A stretch of 36,607 bases of DNA from assembly GCA_020052235.1 (NCBI GenBank), contig JAGVPM010000059.1, forward strand, positions 1 through 36,607. Reading direction: 5' to 3'. A program made the translations under genes and the position numbers. A model generated the notes under the pieces. It made no database searches. It saw only the letters and a program-made list of their open reading frames with translations, and was not told the DNA's origin. The stretch comes from Candidatus Goldiibacteriota bacterium (lineage in GTDB: Bacteria; Oederibacteriota; JAAXVQ01). Position 1 is the first letter of the stretch. Each line of letters opens with the position of its first letter. Below, in pieces: positions 1-36,607 of this stretch.

Positions 1-67
1 AGCAATCTGTTTTTAAGCTCTAAACGCTCCGAAAAAGCGAGATTGCTTCGCTTTGCTCGCAATGACA
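1..67. repeat. Partial copy of the GTCATTGCGAG-type palindromic repeat (family R1), cut by the window edge
   Basis: AGCAATCT...AGATTGCTTCGCTTTGCTCGCAATGAC matches the right half of the copies at 5940-6032, 6338-6368 and 6450-6542. Confidence 0.8.
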
Positions 68-90
68 AATGTAAAGCCATTTAAGAAACA

Positions 91-2723: not shown

Positions 2724-5700
2724 CTAGGCACGTTTTTTATGCCCAAGCGTTGAAACTATTCCCCGCCCTTCGCCTTTAAGCCACTGCTTTCCTTTCCACC
2801 AATAATAAATCACCGGATACACGGCCAGCTCCATGAGCACCGACGTCACCACGCCCCCAACCATGGGAGCTGCAATCCGCTTCATGACATCCGAGCCGGC
2901 CCCGTGACTCCAGAGAATCGGCAGCAAGCCGGCGATGATGACCGCAGCCGTCATGATCTTGGGACGCACGCGCTGGACCGCGCCATGGTCAATGGCCGCG
3001 CGCAAGTCCTCCAGGGAGTTCATCTGTTTACGCTGCACCGCTTCGTCGTACGACCGGTCCAGGTAGAGCAGCATGACCACGCCGGTTTCCGCATCCAACC
3101 CGGCCAGGGCAATGATCCCCACCCACACGGCCAAACTCATGTTGTAACCCAGCAAATACACAAACCCAAAAGCCCCCACCAATGAAAAGGGAACAGCCAG
3201 CAACACAATGGTGGTTTTGGACCATGACTTGGTATTTAAATAGATAATTAGAATAATGATGAACAGCGTCAGCGGAATCACGAGCATGAGCCGTTTCTGC
3301 ATGCGCTGCATGTATTCGAATTCTCCGCTCCAGGTGATCGAATACCCGGTCGGCAGCTTGACCTTTTGCGCAATAGCCTTGCGGGCTCTTTGAATGTATG
3401 TGCCGATGTCAATGCCCCGGATGTCCACAAACACCCAGGCATTGGGCCGGGTGTTTTCGCTGCGGATCACCATGGGGCCTTTTGCCAGGCGAATGTCCGC
3501 CACCTGCCCCAGGGGCACCTGAACCCCGCTGCTCCCTGTCACCAACACGCGCCGAATGGAATCCACATTGTCCCGCAGTTCGCGGCTGTAGCGCAAATTC
3601 ACGGGATAACGTTCCAAGCCTTCCACGGTCGTCGTGATGGTCATGCCGCCCAAGGCTGTTTCAATGACACTGTGCAAATCATCGACATTAATGCCGTAGC
3701 GGGCCGCTTCCGGACGGTTGATGACAATGTCCAAGTAGTTTCCCCCCACGGCCCGTTCTGCAAATGCCGAAGATGTGCCCGGCACCCGGCGCAGGACGCT
3801 TTCGATCTCCTGCCCGATTTGCTGCAGTTGATCCAAGTCCGCGCCGGAAATCTTCACACCCACCGGCGTCTTAATGCCCGTGGACAGCATGTCCGTGCGC
3901 GCCTTTATGGGCATGGTCCAGGCATTGGTCAGTCCCGGGATTTGCACGGCCTGATCGAGTTCGGCGATGAGTTTCTCCACGGTCATGCCTTTGCGCCATT
4001 CCTTTTCAGGTTTGAGCATAATGGTGGTTTCGGCCATATCCAGTCCCGAGGGATCGGTCGCAGTCTCAGCCCGGCCGATTTTTCCGAACACGTGATGGAC
4101 TTCCGGGAAACGTTTGATGATTTTATCCGTCTGTTGCAAAAGCTCTTTGGCTTTGGTAATGGAAATGCCCGGCAGCGTGGTGGGCATGTACAGCAAATCC
4201 CCTTCGTACAAGGGCGGCATAAATTCCGAACCCAAGCGCAAAAACGGCACCAAACCCAACAACACCACCACTCCGGCGGCAATGAATATCGCGCGTGTGT
4301 GTTTCAGCACATATTGCACCACGGGGTGATAGTGTTGGATCAACCAGCGGTTGATGGGATTTTTATCCTCGGAGGGGATATTGCCGCGGATAAAGTATCC
4401 CATCAAAATCGGAACAATAGTCACGGCCAGGAGCGCGGCGGCGCCCATAGCATAGGTTTTGGTAAACGCCAAGGGACGGAACAACCGGCCTTCCTGGGCT
4501 TCCAAACTAAAAATCGGGATAAACGAGACTGTGATTACGAGCAAAGACCAGAAGAGCGCCGGACCAACTTCCTGGGAAGCTTCTTGAATGATCTGCCAAT
4601 GAGGACGCCGTTTGCTTTTGGGCAACGCGCTCTCATGTTCCAAATGCTTGTGCGCGTTTTCAATCATGATAATGGCCGCGTCTACCATGGCGCCAATGGC
4701 AATGGCAATCCCGCCCAAAGACATGATGTTGGCATTGATGCCCTGGGCATGCATGACAATGAACGCGATCAGGATTGCCGTGGGCAATGTGAATACCGCC
4801 ACCAGGGCGCTGCGCGCATGAAACAAAAAGAGTAAACAGACCAAGGCGACGATAATCATTTCCTCGATCAGTTTATCGCGCAGATTTGCAATGGCACGCT
4901 GGATCAAGCTTGAGCGGTCATAGACCGGCACGATCTGAACATCCTTGGGCAAACCGGCTTTAAGTTCCTCCAGCTTGGCTTTCACGCCCTGAATAACCTT
5001 GAGCGCGTTTTGCCCATAGCGCATGACAATGATGCCGCCAGCAGCTTCTCCCTCGCCATTGAGTTCAGACAAGCCGCGCCGCATCTCCGGACCAATCTGA
5101 ATCGTGGCTATATCTTTTAAAAATACAGGCGCATTCCCCCCGCCGCCCATGCCCGTGTTGTTGGCACTGTTCATGCCCACGGGAATGTTGCCCAAATCCT
5201 CCAGGGACTTAATGTAGCCCAAGCCGCGGATCATGAACTCCGCTTCACCCATCTCAATGACTTCTCCCCCAACATCGTGGTTGCCGGCTTTGATGGCCAT
5301 TTCCACGGTTGAGAGCGGCAGGTTGTACGCCTTGAGCCGGGCCGGGTCCACTGTGACTTGATATTGTTTCACGTATCCGCCAATGCTGGCCACTTCTGCC
5401 ACGCCTGAAACACTGGTAAGTTCGTACTTCAAATACCAATCTTGCAAAGACCGCAGTTCCTGCAAGGAGCGCTCCTTGGAAACCAAAGCATACTCATACA
5501 CCCAACCCACCCCGGTCGCATCCGGGCCCAAGGTCGGCACCACGTTCGGCGGCAGGCGTTTTTGCGCATAATTCAAATATTCCAGCACCCGGCTGCGCGC
5601 CCAGTACAAATCCGTGCCATCTTCAAAAATAATGTACACCAGCGAATATCCAAAAAACGAATACCCGCGCACGGCCTTGGACCCGGGCACGGACACCATG

Positions 5701-5915
5701 GCCGTGGTCAGCGGGTACGTCACTTGATCTTCCATGGTGCGGGGAGATTGGCCCGGATACTGGGTGTAGATGATGACCTGTACATCGCTGAGATCCGGGA
5801 TCGCATCCACCTTGGTGTCCAGCATGGAATAAATTCCCAGGCCCATCAACATAACGGTCAGGACGATGACCATGCCTTTGTTGCGAATCGACCAAGCGAT
5901 AATTTTTTCCAGCAT
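2724..5915 (-). CDS. cusA: CusA-type heavy-metal efflux RND transporter
   Basis: 1063 aa, MLEKIIAWSIRNKGMVIVLTVML...DAIPDLSDVQVIIYTQYPGQSPRTMEDQVTYPLTTAM typical of HME-RND pumps. Confidence 0.96.
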   Translation of the reverse strand: MLEKIIAWSIRNKGMVIVLTVMLMGLGIYSMLDTKVDAIPDLSDVQVIIYTQYPGQSPRTMEDQVTYPLTTAMVSVPGSKAVRGYSFFGYSLVYIIFEDGTDLYWARSRVLEYLNYAQKRLPPNVVPTLGPDATGVGWVYEYALVSKERSLQELRSLQDWYLKYELTSVSGVAEVASIGGYVKQYQVTVDPARLKAYNLPLSTVEMAIKAGNHDVGGEVIEMGEAEFMIRGLGYIKSLEDLGNIPVGMNSANNTGMGGGGNAPVFLKDIATIQIGPEMRRGLSELNGEGEAAGGIIVMRYGQNALKVIQGVKAKLEELKAGLPKDVQIVPVYDRSSLIQRAIANLRDKLIEEMIIVALVCLLFLFHARSALVAVFTLPTAILIAFIVMHAQGINANIMSLGGIAIAIGAMVDAAIIMIENAHKHLEHESALPKSKRRPHWQIIQEASQEVGPALFWSLLVITVSFIPIFSLEAQEGRLFRPLAFTKTYAMGAAALLAVTIVPILMGYFIRGNIPSEDKNPINRWLIQHYHPVVQYVLKHTRAIFIAAGVVVLLGLVPFLRLGSEFMPPLYEGDLLYMPTTLPGISITKAKELLQQTDKIIKRFPEVHHVFGKIGRAETATDPSGLDMAETTIMLKPEKEWRKGMTVEKLIAELDQAVQIPGLTNAWTMPIKARTDMLSTGIKTPVGVKISGADLDQLQQIGQEIESVLRRVPGTSSAFAERAVGGNYLDIVINRPEAARYGINVDDLHSVIETALGGMTITTTVEGLERYPVNLRYSRELRDNVDSIRRVLVTGSSGVQVPLGQVADIRLAKGPMVIRSENTRPNAWVFVDIRGIDIGTYIQRARKAIAQKVKLPTGYSITWSGEFEYMQRMQKRLMLVIPLTLFIIILIIYLNTKSWSKTTIVLLAVPFSLVGAFGFVYLLGYNMSLAVWVGIIALAGLDAETGVVMLLYLDRSYDEAVQRKQMNSLEDLRAAIDHGAVQRVRPKIMTAAVIIAGLLPILWSHGAGSDVMKRIAAPMVGGVVTSVLMELAVYPVIYYWWKGKQWLKGEGRGIVSTLGHKKRA

Positions 5916-5939
5916 GATATAAACCTCCCTTATCTGCCT

Positions 5940-6032
5940 GTCATTGCGAGGAACGATTTCTGTGACGAAGCAATCTCAATTTTATATGGACAAATTCAGA
6001 TTGCCGCGCTCCCTTCAGTCGCTCGCAATGAC
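5940..6032. repeat. R1 palindromic repeat, full copy
   Basis: GTCATTGCGAGGAACGATTTCTGTGACGAAGCAATCT...CAGATTGCCGCGCTCCCTTCAGTCGCTCGCAATGAC; near-identical to 6450-6542. Confidence 0.92.
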
Positions 6033-6034
6033 CA

Positions 6035-6325
6035 CTAAAATAAACCGTCATATAAATCTTTAAATTCCTTGTTCGTCTTATTAATCAAATCCAATTTCTT
6101 TTGCCTTGAACCACCTTTAATTTGTTTTTCTCTTTCAATAGCACGATACGGGTCTTCAAAAATTTCAAAATAAACCAACTTGCTAATATTATATTTTTTT
6201 GTAAAGCCTTCAACAATCTTTTGCTTGTGCTCATAAACCCGGCGCTTTATATCCGTCGTAACACCTGTATAGAGCACAGTATTATTCTTGTTCGTAAGAA
6301 TATAAACATAGCTGTTTTTTCGCAT
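6035..6325 (-). CDS. Single-domain GIY-YIG (UvrC/YhbQ-like) endonuclease; start probably MRKNSYVYIL at 6325
   Basis: SYVYILTNKNNTVLYTGVTTDIKRRVYEHK...RAIEREKQIKGGSR; the extra N-term MSLRAKRSNLLGSVS in the 6370 ORF is largely translated repeat. Confidence 0.9.
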   Translation of the reverse strand: MRKNSYVYILTNKNNTVLYTGVTTDIKRRVYEHKQKIVEGFTKKYNISKLVYFEIFEDPYRAIEREKQIKGGSRQKKLDLINKTNKEFKDLYDGLF

Positions 6326-6337
6326 ACTAACACTCCC

Positions 6338-6368
6338 GAGGAGATTGCTTCGCTTTGCTCGCAATGAC
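6338..6368. repeat. R1 half copy
   Basis: CGAGGAGATTGCTTCGCTTTGCTCGCAATGAC, same as the copy at 1-67. Confidence 0.8.
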
Positions 6369-6449
6369 AAACCAAAACCTAATTTCAGCTTGCTCTTCGC
6401 GTTGTCAATGACAAGTTAAAACCCAACTTCGAATTACACTTTTTTTGTT

Positions 6450-6542
6450 GTCATTGCGAGGAGCGATTTCCGTGACGAAGCAATCTCTATTTCTCACAGA
6501 CAAAATCAGATTGCCGCGCTCCCTTCGGTCGCTCGCAATGAC
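6450..6542. repeat. R1 palindromic repeat, full copy
   Basis: GTCATTGCGAGGAGCGATTTCCGTGACGAAGCAATCT...CAGATTGCCGCGCTCCCTTCGGTCGCTCGCAATGAC. Confidence 0.92.
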
Positions 6543-6553
6543 AATAAAAATAA

Positions 6554-7885
6554 TTATTTCATGTCCATGCCTTCCATAGCATCCTGCTTGTCCGGGCTTT
6601 GGGGTTGCGCTTTGGATTTATCCTCAGGCATATCCATGCCCGGCATGCTGCCGCCGTGCTGATGCCCGCTGCCCAACATCCTGACCGCGGATTTTAATTG
6701 GCTTTCTGAATCAATCAAAAATTGGGAAGAGGTCACCACTTTTTCTCCTGCCATCAACCCGTGCAAAACCTGCACATAATCTCCGGCTGACAACCCCAGG
6801 GTAATTTCACGCGGATCAAAATATCCATTGGGCAAGGCAAGCACCACAAGATTGCGTTCACCGGAATGAATGACCGCAGACTCAGGCACGGCCAAATTTT
6901 TCCCGGGAATCGTGGAAACAATCCGGACCGTGGCAAACATGCCCGGTTTGATGGCCGCATCCGGCGTATTGGCCACTTCAATCCGGGCTTGCGCGGTTTT
7001 GGCTTCGCCGCTTAAAACAGGTGAAATAAACGTCACCTGCCCGGTGTACGTCTTTCCGGGTTGATACATCAAATCCACGGTGGCTTGCTGTCCCACCTTA
7101 ACAAACGGCAGGTCCTGCTGGTAAAGATCGGCCATCACCCACACGGTTGACACGTCCGCGATTTTATACACGGCCATGCCGGGCTCAATTTGCTTGCCTT
7201 GCTCGATCATCTTCTCCACCACCACGCCCTGCTCGGACGCGTACAAAGTCATGGTCCGGCCGGGTGTGCCCCGGGTTTCCAGGGCGCGAATCTCGGGTTC
7301 TGAAATATCCCAATTGAGCAACCGGCTGCGGGCACTCTCCAACAGGTTTTGCGCCCCGCGCTTTGACTCTTCCGCCGCATCGGCTGGAAGGGATTGAACA
7401 TAACGGAGCGCTTGCAGATATTCTTGCTGGGTCGAAACCAGATCAGGGCTGTATATTTCCAGCAGTGCTTGTCCCTTGGACACGGATTCGCCCAGGTAAT
7501 TCACGTGCAACTTTTCCACCCAGCCCATGACTTTGGCATTCACGGTATAAACCTTGGGTTCATTGAAAGCCACGGTCCCGCTGGTGCGGATCTCTTTTTT
7601 CAAAACTCTCTCCTGCACGGCCTCGCTCTTTACTCCGATATTCTGCACCACGGCCGGATCTATGCGGATGCCTTTGGCGTTCTTTTCACCCACATACACG
7701 GGCACCATATCCATGCCGCACGGGGCTTTGCCGGGTTTGTCTGTCGTAAAGGCCGGATTCATGGGATCCATGTAATATGCAATGGTCCTTTCCCCTTGAG
7801 CCTGGCTGCCTTTGCCCTTGGCGCAACCCGCAGCAACTGCCAGCATCACGGCAAGTCCTGGGATGATCCACCATTTCCAGTTCAT
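6554..7885 (-). CDS. cusB: CusB-type periplasmic adaptor (membrane fusion protein) with N-terminal heavy-metal-binding segment
   Basis: YYMDPMNPAFTTDKPGKAPCGMDMVPVY plus RND adaptor body; Met/His-rich C-term; adjacent to cusA and cusC. Confidence 0.93.
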   Translation of the reverse strand: MNWKWWIIPGLAVMLAVAAGCAKGKGSQAQGERTIAYYMDPMNPAFTTDKPGKAPCGMDMVPVYVGEKNAKGIRIDPAVVQNIGVKSEAVQERVLKKEIRTSGTVAFNEPKVYTVNAKVMGWVEKLHVNYLGESVSKGQALLEIYSPDLVSTQQEYLQALRYVQSLPADAAEESKRGAQNLLESARSRLLNWDISEPEIRALETRGTPGRTMTLYASEQGVVVEKMIEQGKQIEPGMAVYKIADVSTVWVMADLYQQDLPFVKVGQQATVDLMYQPGKTYTGQVTFISPVLSGEAKTAQARIEVANTPDAAIKPGMFATVRIVSTIPGKNLAVPESAVIHSGERNLVVLALPNGYFDPREITLGLSAGDYVQVLHGLMAGEKVVTSSQFLIDSESQLKSAVRMLGSGHQHGGSMPGMDMPEDKSKAQPQSPDKQDAMEGMDMK

Positions 7886-9303
7886 GGCTTTACCTCTTTC
7901 TTATTAAATTCTGCTTCAATCGTTTCCAGGCTGCAGCCCACGGCCAATTCTAAATCCGCCAGGCTCGTCCAATAATTTTTTTCCGCCATCACATAATTTT
8001 CCCGGGCCATCCAAAGTGTGCGATAAGCATCCAGCAGGCTTAAAAAGTCACGCTGGTTGGTTTGATAGGCAGACAGCGTGGTTTGCCAGGTCTGTTCGGC
8101 TTGCCGCAGTATGGTATCGCGGTTGAGCACCAAAATTTTGTAACTGACTTCCAATTGGGCTGAAATGCGCTGGAGTTGAACATGCAACATATTGCTGCGC
8201 GTTTGATAGTCCGCGCGGCTTTGCCTGACTTGGGCTGAAGTTTGGCTGACGGCTGCCACGGTTTGCGGCAAAGCCCAGGGCGCAAAGGGTATGGTCATTG
8301 CGCCCATCAACGCCCACGCATTATCTGCGCCGCCGCGCATGTCCATGTACATGCCCTTCACCATGAAATCCGGGAAAAACGCCCAGATGCTGGCCGCGTG
8401 TTCCGCTTGTTTCATTTCCACATCCGCTTGTGCTGCTTTTAATTCCGGATGATTTTTTTCCGCCAAGGCCGTCAGTCCGGCCAGCGCGTAGCGGGGTGCT
8501 TGTTTGGGCAGGGCCGGAGGTAAAACCTGAACCGGACTGTCGGGAGCGCGATTGACCAAGACATTAAATTCCGCCAGGGCTATTTTCTGCGCTTGTTCTA
8601 AAATCAGGTTCTGGCTTTGCAGGGTGGAATATTCGGTTTGCACCCGGAATATATCGCTCTGGCTTCCCCGGCCCAAACCATACTGCCTTTCTGTTACGCT
8701 TTGCACCTGCTGCACCAGTTCGCGATTGCGTTGATTATACTCCCGTTTCCGTTCCACTTCGTACAACTCAAAATACATGGCTTTTAAATCCCGCGTGAGT
8801 TGCCGCAGCTTGAGATCCGCTTCCCATTTCAGGCTATCCGCGCGATGGCTCTCGGCTCCCCCCATGGCAATCAATTTTCCCGGAAACATAATGTCTTGCT
8901 GGAGGAAATAATCCACTTCCCTGGCGTCGTTGGCCGGGTTGGGAAACGATGCCAGCGGCGCTTGCTTATATTCCACGCCTGCGCTGGGCGGGTTCAGGCT
9001 GCCGCGAATCCAAGCCGCTGCCCGCGCGGAATCTTCAGCCGCGCGCGCCGAGGCGATTTCCGGGTTGTCTTTTTCCAATACCGCAACCCACTCGGACAGC
9101 GTATAGGCCGAACGTGTCTGTCCCGCTGACTCGACGGAAGAATTCTCGGCGGCCATGCCTATGGCCGCAACCATCGGCCAAGCAAGACACAACAAGCCTA
9201 TATGGATGATCCGTTTCATACGCACCTCGGGTCTGCGGGTCCCATCATTCCATTTTTTTAGTATCGACAATAATACGCTCATGGTCGCCTGCTTCTTTCT
9301 CAA
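7882..9303 (-). CDS. cusC: TolC/CusC-family outer membrane efflux protein
   Basis: Alpha-helical OEP-like sequence, overlaps cusB start by 4 nt. Confidence 0.88.
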   Translation of the reverse strand: MRKKQATMSVLLSILKKWNDGTRRPEVRMKRIIHIGLLCLAWPMVAAIGMAAENSSVESAGQTRSAYTLSEWVAVLEKDNPEIASARAAEDSARAAAWIRGSLNPPSAGVEYKQAPLASFPNPANDAREVDYFLQQDIMFPGKLIAMGGAESHRADSLKWEADLKLRQLTRDLKAMYFELYEVERKREYNQRNRELVQQVQSVTERQYGLGRGSQSDIFRVQTEYSTLQSQNLILEQAQKIALAEFNVLVNRAPDSPVQVLPPALPKQAPRYALAGLTALAEKNHPELKAAQADVEMKQAEHAASIWAFFPDFMVKGMYMDMRGGADNAWALMGAMTIPFAPWALPQTVAAVSQTSAQVRQSRADYQTRSNMLHVQLQRISAQLEVSYKILVLNRDTILRQAEQTWQTTLSAYQTNQRDFLSLLDAYRTLWMARENYVMAEKNYWTSLADLELAVGCSLETIEAEFNKKEVKP

Positions 9304-9806
9304 AATTGCTCTTGCGTACCCTTATGCATGGTGCATTCATTTACTTGGTGCTTCATACGCGCCATGCCCTGGCCCCATTGATTCTGCACAGCTTTCACAA
9401 ACGCCGCACGCTTGGCTTCGGGCAGGCTATCGCGCACGTCCATGATATGCTTCCAGGTCAATATCTCCAGTTGGGTCTGGCTGGCTGTGATTTTTTCCAG
9501 CAGCGCCTGCGACTCCGGATCGTCTGCCTTAGCCGACCCTAAACGCTGTGAAAGCTGTTCCCGCTGCCGGCATAAGGTTGCACATACTTGGGTATATTCG
9601 TTTGTAAACGATTGATCCAAGGCCTGAACCGTGGCTTTAACCTCGGAATTTAGAATGTCTTTCATAGCCAGCGCAGCCACAGTGGAATACTCGCAGTGAT
9701 TTCCACACCTCAAGCCCCGGTGTTCAATCCAGGTTGCCGTACCCCAAAGCGCGATGCCTAATAACACCATTGATGCGCTGGCAATAATTAGCTTCCTAGT
9801 ATCCAT
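9300..9806 (-). CDS. Periplasmic heavy-metal sensor/resistance protein (CnrX/Spy-like)
   Basis: N-term TM anchor, EYSTVAALAMKDILNSEVKATVQALDQSF...EQLSQRL helical architecture; position next to ECF sigma and cus genes. Confidence 0.6.
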   Translation of the reverse strand: MDTRKLIIASASMVLLGIALWGTATWIEHRGLRCGNHCEYSTVAALAMKDILNSEVKATVQALDQSFTNEYTQVCATLCRQREQLSQRLGSAKADDPESQALLEKITASQTQLEILTWKHIMDVRDSLPEAKRAAFVKAVQNQWGQGMARMKHQVNECTMHKGTQEQF

Positions 9807-9820
9807 AACCTAAACGCCTC

Positions 9821-10111
9821 CTATTTCACTATGGTAAATTGCCCTGCCAGTGATCCATCGGACAAGACATGATTTAATTCTGGTCCGGCCAAAGCTGTGT
9901 TTGTGGCTTGAGCTCGGTACTGCCCCACGCCCAACCCCAACAGCAACCCTGCCAATACCGCTCCCACGGGCAGCCATTTCCAACCCGGACGCAATTCCGC
10001 CGCACCATCCACTTGAGCCCAAAACCGTTGTTCGTAGCCCGGACGCGGCCGGTAAATTTTTAGCTCAGAAAAATCTGCCTGCCACTTCTGGTCATCGCCT
10101 AAATGCTTCAT
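9821..10111 (-). CDS. Small single-pass membrane protein, putative anti-sigma factor (CnrY-like position)
   Basis: 96 aa, cytoplasmic N-term then WLPVGAVLAGLLLGLGVGQY TM segment; AAGGAG RBS; between sigma factor and CnrX-like gene. Confidence 0.5.
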   Translation of the reverse strand: MKHLGDDQKWQADFSELKIYRPRPGYEQRFWAQVDGAAELRPGWKWLPVGAVLAGLLLGLGVGQYRAQATNTALAGPELNHVLSDGSLAGQFTIVK

Positions 10112-10200
10112 ATATATACCGCTCCTTTCGCTATCTTCTACTCTATATACGTATGAATTGATTTTTGCTTGCGGGTAAATTTAGTTTTAATTAAAGGCCG

Positions 10201-10351
10201 GGTCTTGGGGGTTTAAAAAACATCGGGTCAGGCCCTCCACAATGTGTCCCCCCGAATTCATGACGGACGCTTAAGATGGTACGTGTGCCGTAACTATGCA
10301 CGGAGTAAAATGTTGGGCTTCGGACCCGATGTTTTTTAAACCCCCAAGACC
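10201..10351. repeat. Element A: ~150 bp palindrome-bounded repeat with 29-bp perfect inverted arms
   Basis: 10201-10229 GGTCTTGGGGGTTTAAAAAACATCGGGTC is the exact reverse complement of 10323-10351; core homologous to the reverse complement of 18425-18543. Confidence 0.95.
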
Positions 10352-10367
10352 TGGCCCGTCATTTAAG

Positions 10368-10910
10368 CTAATTTGTTTCTAAATTTTTTTTCATCCGCTG
10401 CCGGGCGCGGTGCAGGAGGGAGATCACCCCGGATTTGGTGCTTTTCATGACCTGAGCCAATTCGGACATATCCAAATGTTCCACATAATATAGGAAAACA
10501 GCCGTGCGTTGGGCTTCGGGCAGTTGCTGGAGCGCGGATTCCAGGCGCTGGGTTTTTTCCTGATTCAGGGCATTCTGTTCAGGTGATGGTGTTTTCGTGC
10601 TTTGCTCGGCCAAAACATCCGGATTTGCAAATTCACGGTGTTTGCGAAAATAATCGAGTGCGGTGCGGCGGGCTATTTGAAAAATCCAGGGTTGAAATGG
10701 TTTTTGGGCATCGTACTGGTCAAACGCCTGCCAGGCTTTGAGAAACGCGTCCTGGGTCAGATCTTCGGCCGTGGCGGGCCGGCGCACCAGGCGCAGGACA
10801 TAGTTGTAAACTTTGGGGAAGTGAGCCGTCAGATGGACCTGAAATAATTGCCGTCGGGCCTGCAAATCCATAGAATGCTCCGAAACGGAGATGTGATCCA
10901 AGTCGTGCAA
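10368..10910 (-). CDS. ECF-type RNA polymerase sigma factor
   Basis: LVRRPATAEDLTQDAFLKAWQAFDQYDAQKPFQPWIFQIARRTALDYFRKHR ... LPEAQRTAVFLYYVEHLDMSELAQVMKSTKSGVISLLHRARQRMKK (sigma2/sigma4). Confidence 0.93.
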   Translation of the reverse strand: MHDLDHISVSEHSMDLQARRQLFQVHLTAHFPKVYNYVLRLVRRPATAEDLTQDAFLKAWQAFDQYDAQKPFQPWIFQIARRTALDYFRKHREFANPDVLAEQSTKTPSPEQNALNQEKTQRLESALQQLPEAQRTAVFLYYVEHLDMSELAQVMKSTKSGVISLLHRARQRMKKNLETN

Positions 10911-16071: not shown

Positions 16072-16649
16072 AGCCGAATAATCTCCCCTCGAATGGTGCC
16101 TGAATCCAGGGTCAGTATTCCCGCCGAACGGTACTTGGCCACCACGGCATCAGTGGGGCTGCCTGGATTGAAAAACCAGATGCCTTTTTCCTGTCCCCAA
16201 AACGCTTCGTGCGTATGTCCGTACACGATCACCCGGGGGTGATGAAGCTCCCTGCGGCAAGCCGCAGGGTATCGGATATCATGCCCCGAGCGCCCTTTAT
16301 TTATCCCTGCCTCAAGCGGCAGGGTATTGATAGGCGAAAGGGTATGAAATTCACGCGCGATATGCTCCCGGATGTTGTGCCTCGGTCCGCCGTTCCCATG
16401 GATCAAGCCCACGGAAACACCCTCCAGTGTCAGCTCTATTTTCAGCGGCAAGCCGTGCGCCGGGTCATCCATATTCCCCCGGACCGCCGCCACCGGTGCA
16501 ATCGCGGACAATTCATCCAACACCGACATGCGCACAATGTCTCCGGCATGGAGGATTAACTCCACGCCGTGAAAGGCCTCGAACAGCGCTTGGGGTAAAC
16601 GCAACGCGCGTTCTGGAACATGAGTATCGGATAAGACGCCAATGCGCAT
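16068..16649 (-). CDS. YfcE/MJ0936-family phosphodiesterase (calcineurin-like) carrying an in-frame repeat-derived insertion
   Basis: MRIGVLSDTHVPER...LILHAGDI...AVRGNMD...GLIHGNGG...VIVYGHTHEAF...FFNPGSPTD; central HTLSPINTLPLEAGINKGRSGHDIRYPAACRRELH is encoded by a genomic repeat. Confidence 0.88.
   Translation of the reverse strand: MRIGVLSDTHVPERALRLPQALFEAFHGVELILHAGDIVRMSVLDELSAIAPVAAVRGNMDDPAHGLPLKIELTLEGVSVGLIHGNGGPRHNIREHIAREFHTLSPINTLPLEAGINKGRSGHDIRYPAACRRELHHPRVIVYGHTHEAFWGQEKGIWFFNPGSPTDAVVAKYRSAGILTLDSGTIRGEIIRL
16249..16346. repeat. R2 palindromic repeat, intragenic copy
   Basis: CCCTGCGGCAAGCCGCAGGGTATCGGATATCATGCCCCGAGCGCCCTTTATTTATCCCTGCCTCAAGCGGCAGGGTATTGATAGGCGAAAGGGTATGA; closely matches 21352-21449. 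Confidence 0.93.
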
Positions 16650-18403: not shown

Positions 18404-18564
18404 GGGCCTCGTCATAAGCTTTTTAAAACATCGGGTCCGAAGCCCAACATTTTACTCCGTGCATAGTTACGGTACACGCACTAAATCAACCGCCCGGCAT
18501 GAATTCGGGGGGACACATTAAGGAGGGCCTGACCCGATGTTTTAAAAAGCTTATGACGAGGCCC
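18404..18564. repeat. Element B: ~160 bp palindrome-bounded repeat with 34-bp perfect inverted arms
   Basis: 18404-18437 GGGCCTCGTCATAAGCTTTTTAAAACATCGGGTC is the exact reverse complement of 18531-18564; core homologous to element A in opposite orientation. Confidence 0.95.
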
Positions 18565-18610
18565 ATGAATTCTTTATATTTGCTGCTTTGCCAACAGCAT
18601 AGTTCCGAAA

Positions 18611-21449
<2,839 letters not shown>

Positions 21450-21451
21450 AC

Positions 21452-21700
21452 TTACACAAAACTCTGCGTTTTAAAACGCCGAGCTAATGTCGAAGCATCT
21501 AAAGGAGATAAATATACGGTTCCCTTCTTACAAACCACAGCCGACCGGTAGGGACCCGTTCCGATTTTTCTTCTGCGTTCCAAAGCCCCTTCAAAAAGAA
21601 AGGCATATAAAATAGAATCTTTTGACAAATGGTGCAGATTTAAAATACTCACTATTTGCTTCGACGATATTGCAAAATCATTTCCCAAGTGGAGGGACAT
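21452..21700 (-). CDS. RemA/RemB (DUF370, YaaB-like) family protein
   Basis: MSLHLGNDFAISSKQIVSILNLHH...; position between recF and gyrB as for YaaB. Confidence 0.7.
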   Translation of the reverse strand: MSLHLGNDFAISSKQIVSILNLHHLSKDSILYAFLFEGALERRRKIGTGPYRSAVVCKKGTVYLSPLDASTLARRFKTQSFV

Positions 21701-36377: not shown

Positions 36378-36550
36378 TTACGGGGTTTGAATTGGGGGCG
36401 AAATTTCGGCCCAGCCGTTTTCAGCAAGGGTAATTTGTGTTCCCCAGGGAAGTGAACGTTGGGACAATAAATGATAAACATTATCCGCAAGCCGGCCCGA
36501 TAGCGGTGTGGGTACGTGCGCCGGTCCAAGGCGGCCACCCGCTACGATTC
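36378..36550 (-). pseudogene. 3' fragment of an unidentified CDS, no start codon supported
   Basis: Minus-strand reading ...GRLGPAHVPTPLSGRLADNVYHLLSQRSLPWGTQITLAENGWAEISPPIQTP*; frame closes (TGA) on entering the tandem repeats. Confidence 0.4.
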
Positions 36551-36607
36551 ATGACGGCCACCTGTTACGATCCAAGGCGGCCACCCGTTACGATTCATGA
36601 CGGCCAC
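36530..36607. repeat. 23-bp tandem direct repeats, possible IS21-family terminal repeats at window edge
   Basis: GGCGGCCACCCGCTACGATTCAT / GACGGCCACCTGTTACGATCCAA / GGCGGCCACCCGTTACGATTCAT / GACGGCCAC... Confidence 0.75.

What the first reader, a model, noticed from the sequence alone, without database searches (positions are those of the whole stretch)
10201..10351. Element A: mobile-looking core closed by locus-specific perfect inverted arms (terminator-loop insertion?)
Seen: arms 10201-10229 and 10323-10351 are perfect reverse complements (29 bp). The innermost AAAACATCGGGTC and the ~93 bp interior are shared with element B, but the outer GGTCTTGGGGGTTT is unrelated to B's outer arm. Read on the minus strand, the hairpin starts ~7-17 nt after the ECF sigma stop codon. 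Its distal arm ends ...CCCCCAAGACCCGGCCTTTAATTAAAA, which looks like an intrinsic terminator. Inference: a small non-autonomous element (core AAACATCGGGTC...GACCCGATGTTT) inserted into the loop of an existing terminator hairpin. An alternative is that the arms are kept identical by hairpin-templated correction. The core motifs CGGGTCAGGCC and TGTGTCCCCCCGAATTC vaguely resemble REP/RAYT-associated sequences, but I cannot confirm that. Insertion of IS elements into REP/PU palindromes is a known precedent; a ~100 bp passenger targeting terminator loops would be new to me.
Basis: partly seen in the sequence, partly recalled or inferred. Interest (0 to 1): 0.88.

Follow-up and report, generated by a model that had tools for sequence, protein, structure and literature searches.

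The report
Miniature transposon with self-matching flipping hairpin
Element A is one of about fifteen copies, found so far in one bacterial genome only, of a small non-coding jumping element whose inner hairpin arms differ from copy to copy yet match within each copy, and whose centre has flipped and been swapped between copies; most likely DNA-copying errors at the hairpin keep the arms matched.

Summary
In detail: 29-bp perfect arms, 93-bp core, and copy B with a related core but different outer arms. The genome (candidate phylum FCPU426) holds 15 complete copies plus fragments. None was found in the one congener held, in other phylum members, or in the viral, phage and plasmid collections.

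The element is not a passenger in terminator loops. Ten copies carry, at a near-constant distance (61-69 nt outside the core, usually 64), a terminal inverted repeat CGGAACTATGCTGTTGGCAAAGC on one or both sides, and the best-preserved copies have exact 8-bp target duplications. It is a miniature transposon of about 250 bp with two nested inverted repeats. A and a few others have lost the outer ends but kept the inner hairpin, usually just after a stop codon.

Unusual are (1) inner arms that differ by ~48% between copies but pair >98% within a copy, while outer ends of the same copies decay; (2) a core whose orientation is unlinked to its frame (A versus B; frame-identical L002 versus L011); (3) cores exchanged between frames. 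Polymerase template switching at inverted repeats is known to homogenise arms and invert spacers; with inter-copy recombination it explains all three. Selection for an RNA hairpin remains the main rival. No mobilising transposase was found.

The parts
10201..10229 (+). Element A, left inner arm: copy-specific GGTCTTGGGGG, then TTTAAAAAA, then conserved CATCGGGTC
10230..10322 (+). Element A core (93 bp), 'A-type'; 5-6 differences in 93 from cores L002, L003 and L004
10323..10351 (+). Element A, right inner arm, perfect complement of 10201-10229
10178..10200 (+). Element A, 'a'-side spacer (AATTTAGTTTTAATTAAAGGCCG), homologous to the a-side of L002, L006 and L011; the outer terminal repeat beyond it is no longer recognisable
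10352..10374 (+). Element A, 'b'-side spacer (TGGCCCGTCATTTAAGCTAATTT); runs into the ECF sigma stop codon (10368-10370)
18404..18437 (+). Element B, inner arm (34 bp) on the a-side
18438..18530 (-). Element B core (93 bp), A-type, in the opposite orientation to A's core although A and B have their frames the same way round (a-side left, b-side right)
18531..18564 (+). Element B, inner arm on the b-side, perfect complement of 18404-18437
18585..18607 (-). Element B, outer terminal inverted repeat on the b-side (CGGAACTATGCTGTTGGCAAAGC); the partner end on the a-side is missing

Best explanation
A and B are copies of a non-autonomous miniature transposon of about 250 bp: 23-bp terminal inverted repeats (CGGAACTATGCTGTTGGCAAAGC), about 20-30 nt AT-rich asymmetric spacers (sides a and b), a 30-32-bp inner inverted repeat, and a 93-95-nt core. 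SHOWN: the element inserts into AT-rich DNA with an 8-bp target duplication; outer ends decay while the inner arms stay paired; inner arms change on both sides together; core orientation is independent of the frame; cores and frames have been re-assorted. INFERRED: the inner palindrome extrudes as a hairpin or cruciform during replication, and polymerase template switching between its arms copies one arm onto the other (homogenisation) and sometimes turns the spacer round (core inversion). Homologous recombination between copies, through the shared TTTAAAnCATCGGGTCAGGCCCTC blocks in either orientation, replaces cores. INFERRED, weaker: copies that remain after the ends are lost, such as A, are tolerated or kept as 3'-end hairpins behind genes, because most gene-following copies are read from the b to the a side.
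For: 15 complete copies in the genome. Terminal repeats at 61-69 nt from the core edge, mostly 64. Over 8 copies the 8-bp flanks match at 50 of 64 positions against 29 when re-paired, P = 0.00016; L002, L011 and L014 match 8/8. Inner stem: 98.5% of cells paired, 18 of 32 pairs with changes on both sides, covariation score 0.42 against 0.10 in shuffles and <=0.06 when slid. Variable arm differs 0.48 between A-type copies while loop edges differ 0.026 and loop middle 0.17; in pairwise comparisons both sides differ 653 times and one side 96; the few mismatches show no strand preference (4 G-T against 4 A-C/C-A), as expected of DNA rather than of one RNA strand. In the same 8 copies terminal-repeat mismatches are 33/184 against 6/254 in the inner stem, Fisher P = 2e-8; without L007 16/161 against 4/222, P = 7e-4. 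Core inversion: L002 and L011 have identical 52-column frames but opposite cores; A against B likewise inverted. Module exchange: Mantel test and AU test, p = 0.0006. Precedent: template switching between inverted repeats gives both 'homogenization of IR arms' and 'IR spacer inversion' (PMC8604942), and one-step compensatory changes and loop inversions (PMC8794818).
Against: Published spacer inversions and corrections involve short spacers (the yeast survey was limited to <=70 bp, PMC8604942); 93 nt is longer. The loop also looks conserved within the A-type, so selection on the hairpin is not excluded. Only 8 informative mismatches bear on the strand test. No transposase with these ends was found; IS1595, ISL3 and IS256 families are absent from the assembly. 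The a/b side assignment of L005, L007 and L008 is by eye. The genome is a 200-contig assembly, probably a metagenome bin, so chimeric joins or misoriented loops cannot be fully excluded.
Confidence: 0.62

Rival explanations
1. The inner hairpin is a functional RNA (3'-end processing or stabilising hairpin, terminator or small RNA). Arms are free to drift but must pair, so they change by compensatory mutation under selection, while the core is conserved for function.
For: The pattern of conserved loop edges and covarying stem is that of a structured RNA. Ten of 15 copies lie just downstream of a stop codon; in L001, L015 and L016 the hairpin starts within about 15 nt of it. By my reading 8 of 9 such copies are read from the b to the a side (binomial P = 0.039). 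Copies without terminal repeats keep the hairpin.
Against: No strand bias in G-T against A-C mismatches and few single-sided intermediates; pairwise double changes are mostly transversions, 454 against 199, which cannot pass through G-U. Core orientation relative to the upstream gene is mixed (A and L010 against the rest), so one strand's loop cannot be what is selected. No Rfam family. No canonical terminator by rule.
Confidence: 0.22
2. One reading: a mobile core inserts into the loops of pre-existing terminator hairpins.
For: Arms are locus-specific and the core moves between frames. G001 has GC-rich hairpins downstream of the two orthologous genes looked at.
Against: Arms have fixed length and register and are enclosed by a conserved terminal repeat and target duplications. 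Spacers beyond the arms are shared between loci. Intact terminators lie beside copies. No empty site with the same arms was found.
Confidence: 0.05
3. A site-specific recombinase acting at CATCGGGTC/GACCCGATG inverts and exchanges cores (an inverton or cassette system).
For: Inverted conserved blocks flank the core, orientation is mixed, and cores are exchanged.
Against: Arms outside the block are homogenised too, which strand exchange at a core site does not do. No promoter-like signal was recognised in the core. The number of copies in each orientation and the frame mosaic are also explained by homologous recombination.
Confidence: 0.06
4. Core inversion and mosaicism are assembly artefacts of a short-read genome with near-identical copies.
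For: 200 contigs; several copies lie near contig ends (L006, L008, L021, L026).
Against: Frames differ strongly between most exchanged copies, and shared exact stretches are short compared with usual assembly k-mers. A and B sit well inside one 36.6-kb contig. Copy-specific complementary arms cannot arise by misassembly.
Confidence: 0.05

Closest known systems
Prokaryotic MITEs, e.g. QMITE2 of Coxiella burnetii and Chunjie of Geobacter (review PMC10969869)
   Same: Terminal inverted repeats of 23-29 bp, direct repeats of 7-9 bp, total 190-235 bp, AT-rich targets, no coding capacity; truncated copies that lost repeats and ends look like plain palindromes (QMITE2)
   Different: A second, nested inverted repeat whose arms are copy-specific and stay paired after the ends have decayed; core orientation and frame re-assort. 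Such features were not seen in the passages of the review that were read.
Correia repeat enclosed elements of Neisseria
   Same: Small intergenic palindromic mobile elements; inversion has been reported (cited in PMC10969869)
   Different: That report concerns the element as a whole; here the core turns within its own frame. Sequence unrelated.
Template switching at quasi-palindromes (PMC8604942, PMC8794818)
   Same: Arm homogenisation and spacer inversion, the two signatures seen here
   Different: There they are single events in yeast genes and rRNA hairpins with short loops; here both recur in a repeat family with a ~93-nt loop, and decaying outer ends in the same copies give an internal control.
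REP/REPIN with RAYT (PMC3733652)
   Same: Intergenic palindromes behind genes; Y1 transposases occur in the genome
   Different: REPs are 20-40 bp with a GTAG or CGTC tag and short loops; here ~250 bp with terminal repeats and target duplication, and no link to the Y1 genes examined.

Membership tests
MITE (non-autonomous DDE-type miniature transposon) | Terminal inverted repeats shared by dispersed copies | tested here: met
   CGGAACTATGCTGTTGGCAAAGC at 61-69 nt from the core on one or both sides of 10 copies; 21 pattern hits in the genome (15 with <=2 mismatches) against 2 for the reversed control. Not met for A itself, L005, L015 and L016, whose ends are lost.
MITE (non-autonomous DDE-type miniature transposon) | Target-site duplication of fixed length | tested here: met
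   8 bp; exact in L002, L011 and L014, 7/8 in L006, 6/8 in L003; overall P = 0.00016
MITE (non-autonomous DDE-type miniature transposon) | A transposase with the same ends in the genome or relatives | tested here: inconclusive
   No terminal-repeat pair around a transposase was identified (hits not all inspected); IS1595, ISL3 and IS256 families absent; other families not searched
MITE (non-autonomous DDE-type miniature transposon) | Absence from orthologous sites in relatives | tested here: met
   No copy in congener G001; orthologues of the A- and L016-adjacent genes there lack it. G001 is 84% complete.
REP/REPIN (RAYT-mobilised) | 20-40-bp palindrome with terminal GTAG or CGTC tag | tested here: not met
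   Inner arms of 29-34 bp with a 93-nt loop, no constant tag (definition from PMC3733652)
REP/REPIN (RAYT-mobilised) | RAYT gene flanked by the repeat | tested here: not met
   Five Y1_Tnp genes; the four retrieved loci have neither core nor terminal repeat
Intrinsic terminator | Short GC-rich stem, loop of 3-8 nt, T-run | tested here: not met
   None at A or B by rule
Structured RNA family | Match to a described family or covariation within the loop | tested here: not met
   No Rfam match to the element; covariation confined to the main stem
Template-switching substrate | Arm homogenisation together with spacer inversion | tested here: met
   The mechanism itself is not observed.

The most novel reading that the evidence does not exclude
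The core is itself a minimal mobile cassette (about 110 bp, bounded by CATCGGGTC/GACCCGATG) that homes into hairpin loops of resident palindromes in either orientation, replacing the previous core. The A-type would be a recent sweep over older B/C-type cores, driven by a dedicated recombinase.
Probability: 0.08. Interest if true: 0.82.

Novelty: new variant of a known kind. Interest (0 to 1): 0.5.

Why it matters
How long DNA and RNA stems stay perfectly paired without passing through broken intermediates is an open question. Here one genome holds a natural replicate series: about 15 copies of one palindrome with arms that have drifted to near-random differences yet stay paired, loops that flip, and decaying outer ends in the same copies as a built-in control. 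It could be used to measure template-switch correction and loop inversion in a bacterium at a loop length (93 nt) beyond the published short-spacer cases. It also warns that covariation alone, even 18 covarying pairs, does not prove a functional RNA when the sequence is a mobile palindrome.

Tried and rejected
Terminator-loop insertion: rejected on terminal repeats, target duplications and shared spacers. REP/RAYT: rejected. Known RNA family: none. A maintained secondary structure inside the core: only a few extra invariant or nearly invariant pairs in the consensus, and by eye the internal hairpin GTGC...GCAC of A-type is broken in L002, L009 and L011. Hypermutation of arms: not needed, since in the recent group (L002, L006, L009, L011) arms change about as fast as cores. 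Spread by virus or plasmid: no hit by exact core pattern in IMG/VR, nor by distant BLAST in phage and plasmid records. Other genomes: no hit in GTDB 220 by exact core pattern, nor in 145 relatives by BLAST and 59 by covariance model; one weak covariance-model hit in G033 (E = 0.019, 82 nt) was not pursued. Autonomous partner: not found. Empty site for B: no DNA match in G001, uninformative.

Full report
OBSERVATION. The arms of A (10201-10229 / 10323-10351) are perfect over 29 bp around 93 bp. B (18404-18564) has 34-bp perfect arms around 93 bp and an 88% related core in inverse orientation. This is far beyond chance.

COPIES. A search of the window's own genome (3.17 Mb, 200 contigs) with the core gives 12 copies at >=89% identity plus diverged ones. 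A covariance model of the inner 157 nt finds 15 complete copies and a partial one, all in this genome; apart from one weak, unpursued hit in G033 (E = 0.019, 82 nt), none in the congener G001 or the other relatives searched. BLAST over 145 relatives, an exact core pattern over GTDB genomes and IMG/VR, and distant BLAST of phages and plasmids were negative. The nearest FixC homologues place the host in candidate division FCPU426.

ANATOMY. Outside the inner arms, 10 copies carry CGGAACTATGCTGTTGGCAAAGC on one or both sides, starting 61-69 nt (mostly 64) from the core edge. Flanking 8-mers are identical in L002 (TTTTTTTA), L011 (TAATTAAA) and L014 (TTTATCTT), and near-identical in L006 and L003. 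Over the eight copies tested 50 of 64 positions match, against 29 when left and right flanks of different copies are paired, P = 0.00016. So the full element is a miniature transposon of about 250 bp, and A is an old copy whose outer ends are unrecognisable. Between ends and inner arms lie two different spacers, side a (GGCCTTTAATTTAAA or GCCTTTCAATAAAA) and side b (GGCCCATGAATTC or GCCGCMC). A's own spacers belong to these series, so its outer arm is not a captured local terminator.

ARMS. Between A-type copies the variable 12 bp of the arm differ at 48%, against 2.6% at loop edges and 17% in the loop middle; within copies non-Watson-Crick pairs are rare. Of 32 stem pairs 18 show changes on both sides and 98.5% of cells pair. 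Double changes are mostly transversions and the residual mismatches show no strand preference. In the same copies the outer ends have drifted apart: 33 mismatches in 184 against 6 in 254 in the inner stem. The inner arms are therefore kept equal after insertion, whether by correction or by selection.

CORE. Taking the a and b sides as reference, the core lies one way in L001 (A), L004, L006, L007, L010, L011 and L014 and the other way in L002, L003, L009 (B), L012, L015 and L016 (L005, L007 and L008 are assigned with less certainty). L002 and L011 have identical 52-column frames with opposite cores. In the window itself A and B have frames the same way round and cores opposed. Core and frame histories disagree: L002 and L003 have cores 3/93 apart but different frames, while L003 and L015 share arms and spacers but have cores 31/93 apart. 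The Mantel correlation of core with frame is nil, while the a-side and b-side agree (P = 0.001), and the core data reject the clade of frame-type L003/L004/L012/L015/L016 (AU p = 0.0006).

CONTEXT. The copies whose flanks could be read lie between genes; ten lie just behind a stop codon. By my reading transcripts enter the b side in A, B, L003, L005, L010, L012, L015 and L016, against L011, with L004 between convergent genes (8 of 9, P = 0.039; post hoc). A stands between an ECF sigma gene and the next genes of a metal-efflux cluster; B between gyrB and serS. At the L016 locus the G001 orthologue (acylphosphatase followed by a sigma factor gene) lacks the element, and a separate palindrome stands next to L016. 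At the A locus the ECF orthologue of G001 has other DNA downstream. Canonical terminators stand intact beside L007 and L011.

MECHANISM. Template switching of DNA polymerase between arms of an inverted repeat homogenises arms and can invert the spacer (PMC8604942), and can make compensatory changes in one step (PMC8794818). Both signatures occur here together. Core replacement between copies needs in addition recombination through the shared inner blocks, possible in either orientation because the blocks are inverted. What is shown is the pattern; the mechanism is inferred. Selection for a 3'-end RNA hairpin could act as well, and would explain why A, L015 and L016 keep the hairpin next to stop codons after losing the ends.

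VERDICT. Real, well above chance, and not a terminator-loop insertion. A lineage-restricted miniature transposon with an unusual nested palindrome; the biology is mostly explicable by known processes, but the combination is a useful natural experiment.

Noticed in passing
window 2724-10910 (-): ECF sigma gene, 96-aa protein without a Pfam match above cut-off, Metal_resist-like protein, OEP, CusB/HlyD and AcrB-type pump in one direction: order reminiscent of Cnr/Cus metal efflux; element A separates the sigma gene from the rest.
   Followed up: partly
window 39-82 and 6341-6384: Repeat GAGATTGCTTCGCTTTGCTCGCAATGACA (86%); the same repeat abuts truncated element copies L008 and L021.
   Followed up: no
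window 16259-16354 and 21362-21457: 96-nt direct repeat, 85% identical.
   Followed up: no
window 36522-36607: Tandem array of a 23-bp unit at the contig end.
   Followed up: no
L016 1640-1700: Separate near-perfect palindrome AAATTTACAGGGAACGGGCATGCCTGTTCCCTGTAAATTT next to the element, upstream of a sigma-factor gene.
   Followed up: no
L026 (C103), L035 (C161), L039 (C61): Solitary element ends without the inner hairpin; L039's end abuts the palindrome GTAGAGACGCAAAATTTTGCGTCTCTAC.
   Followed up: partly
L162-L165: Y1-type transposase genes in the genome, no relation to the element seen.
   Followed up: partly
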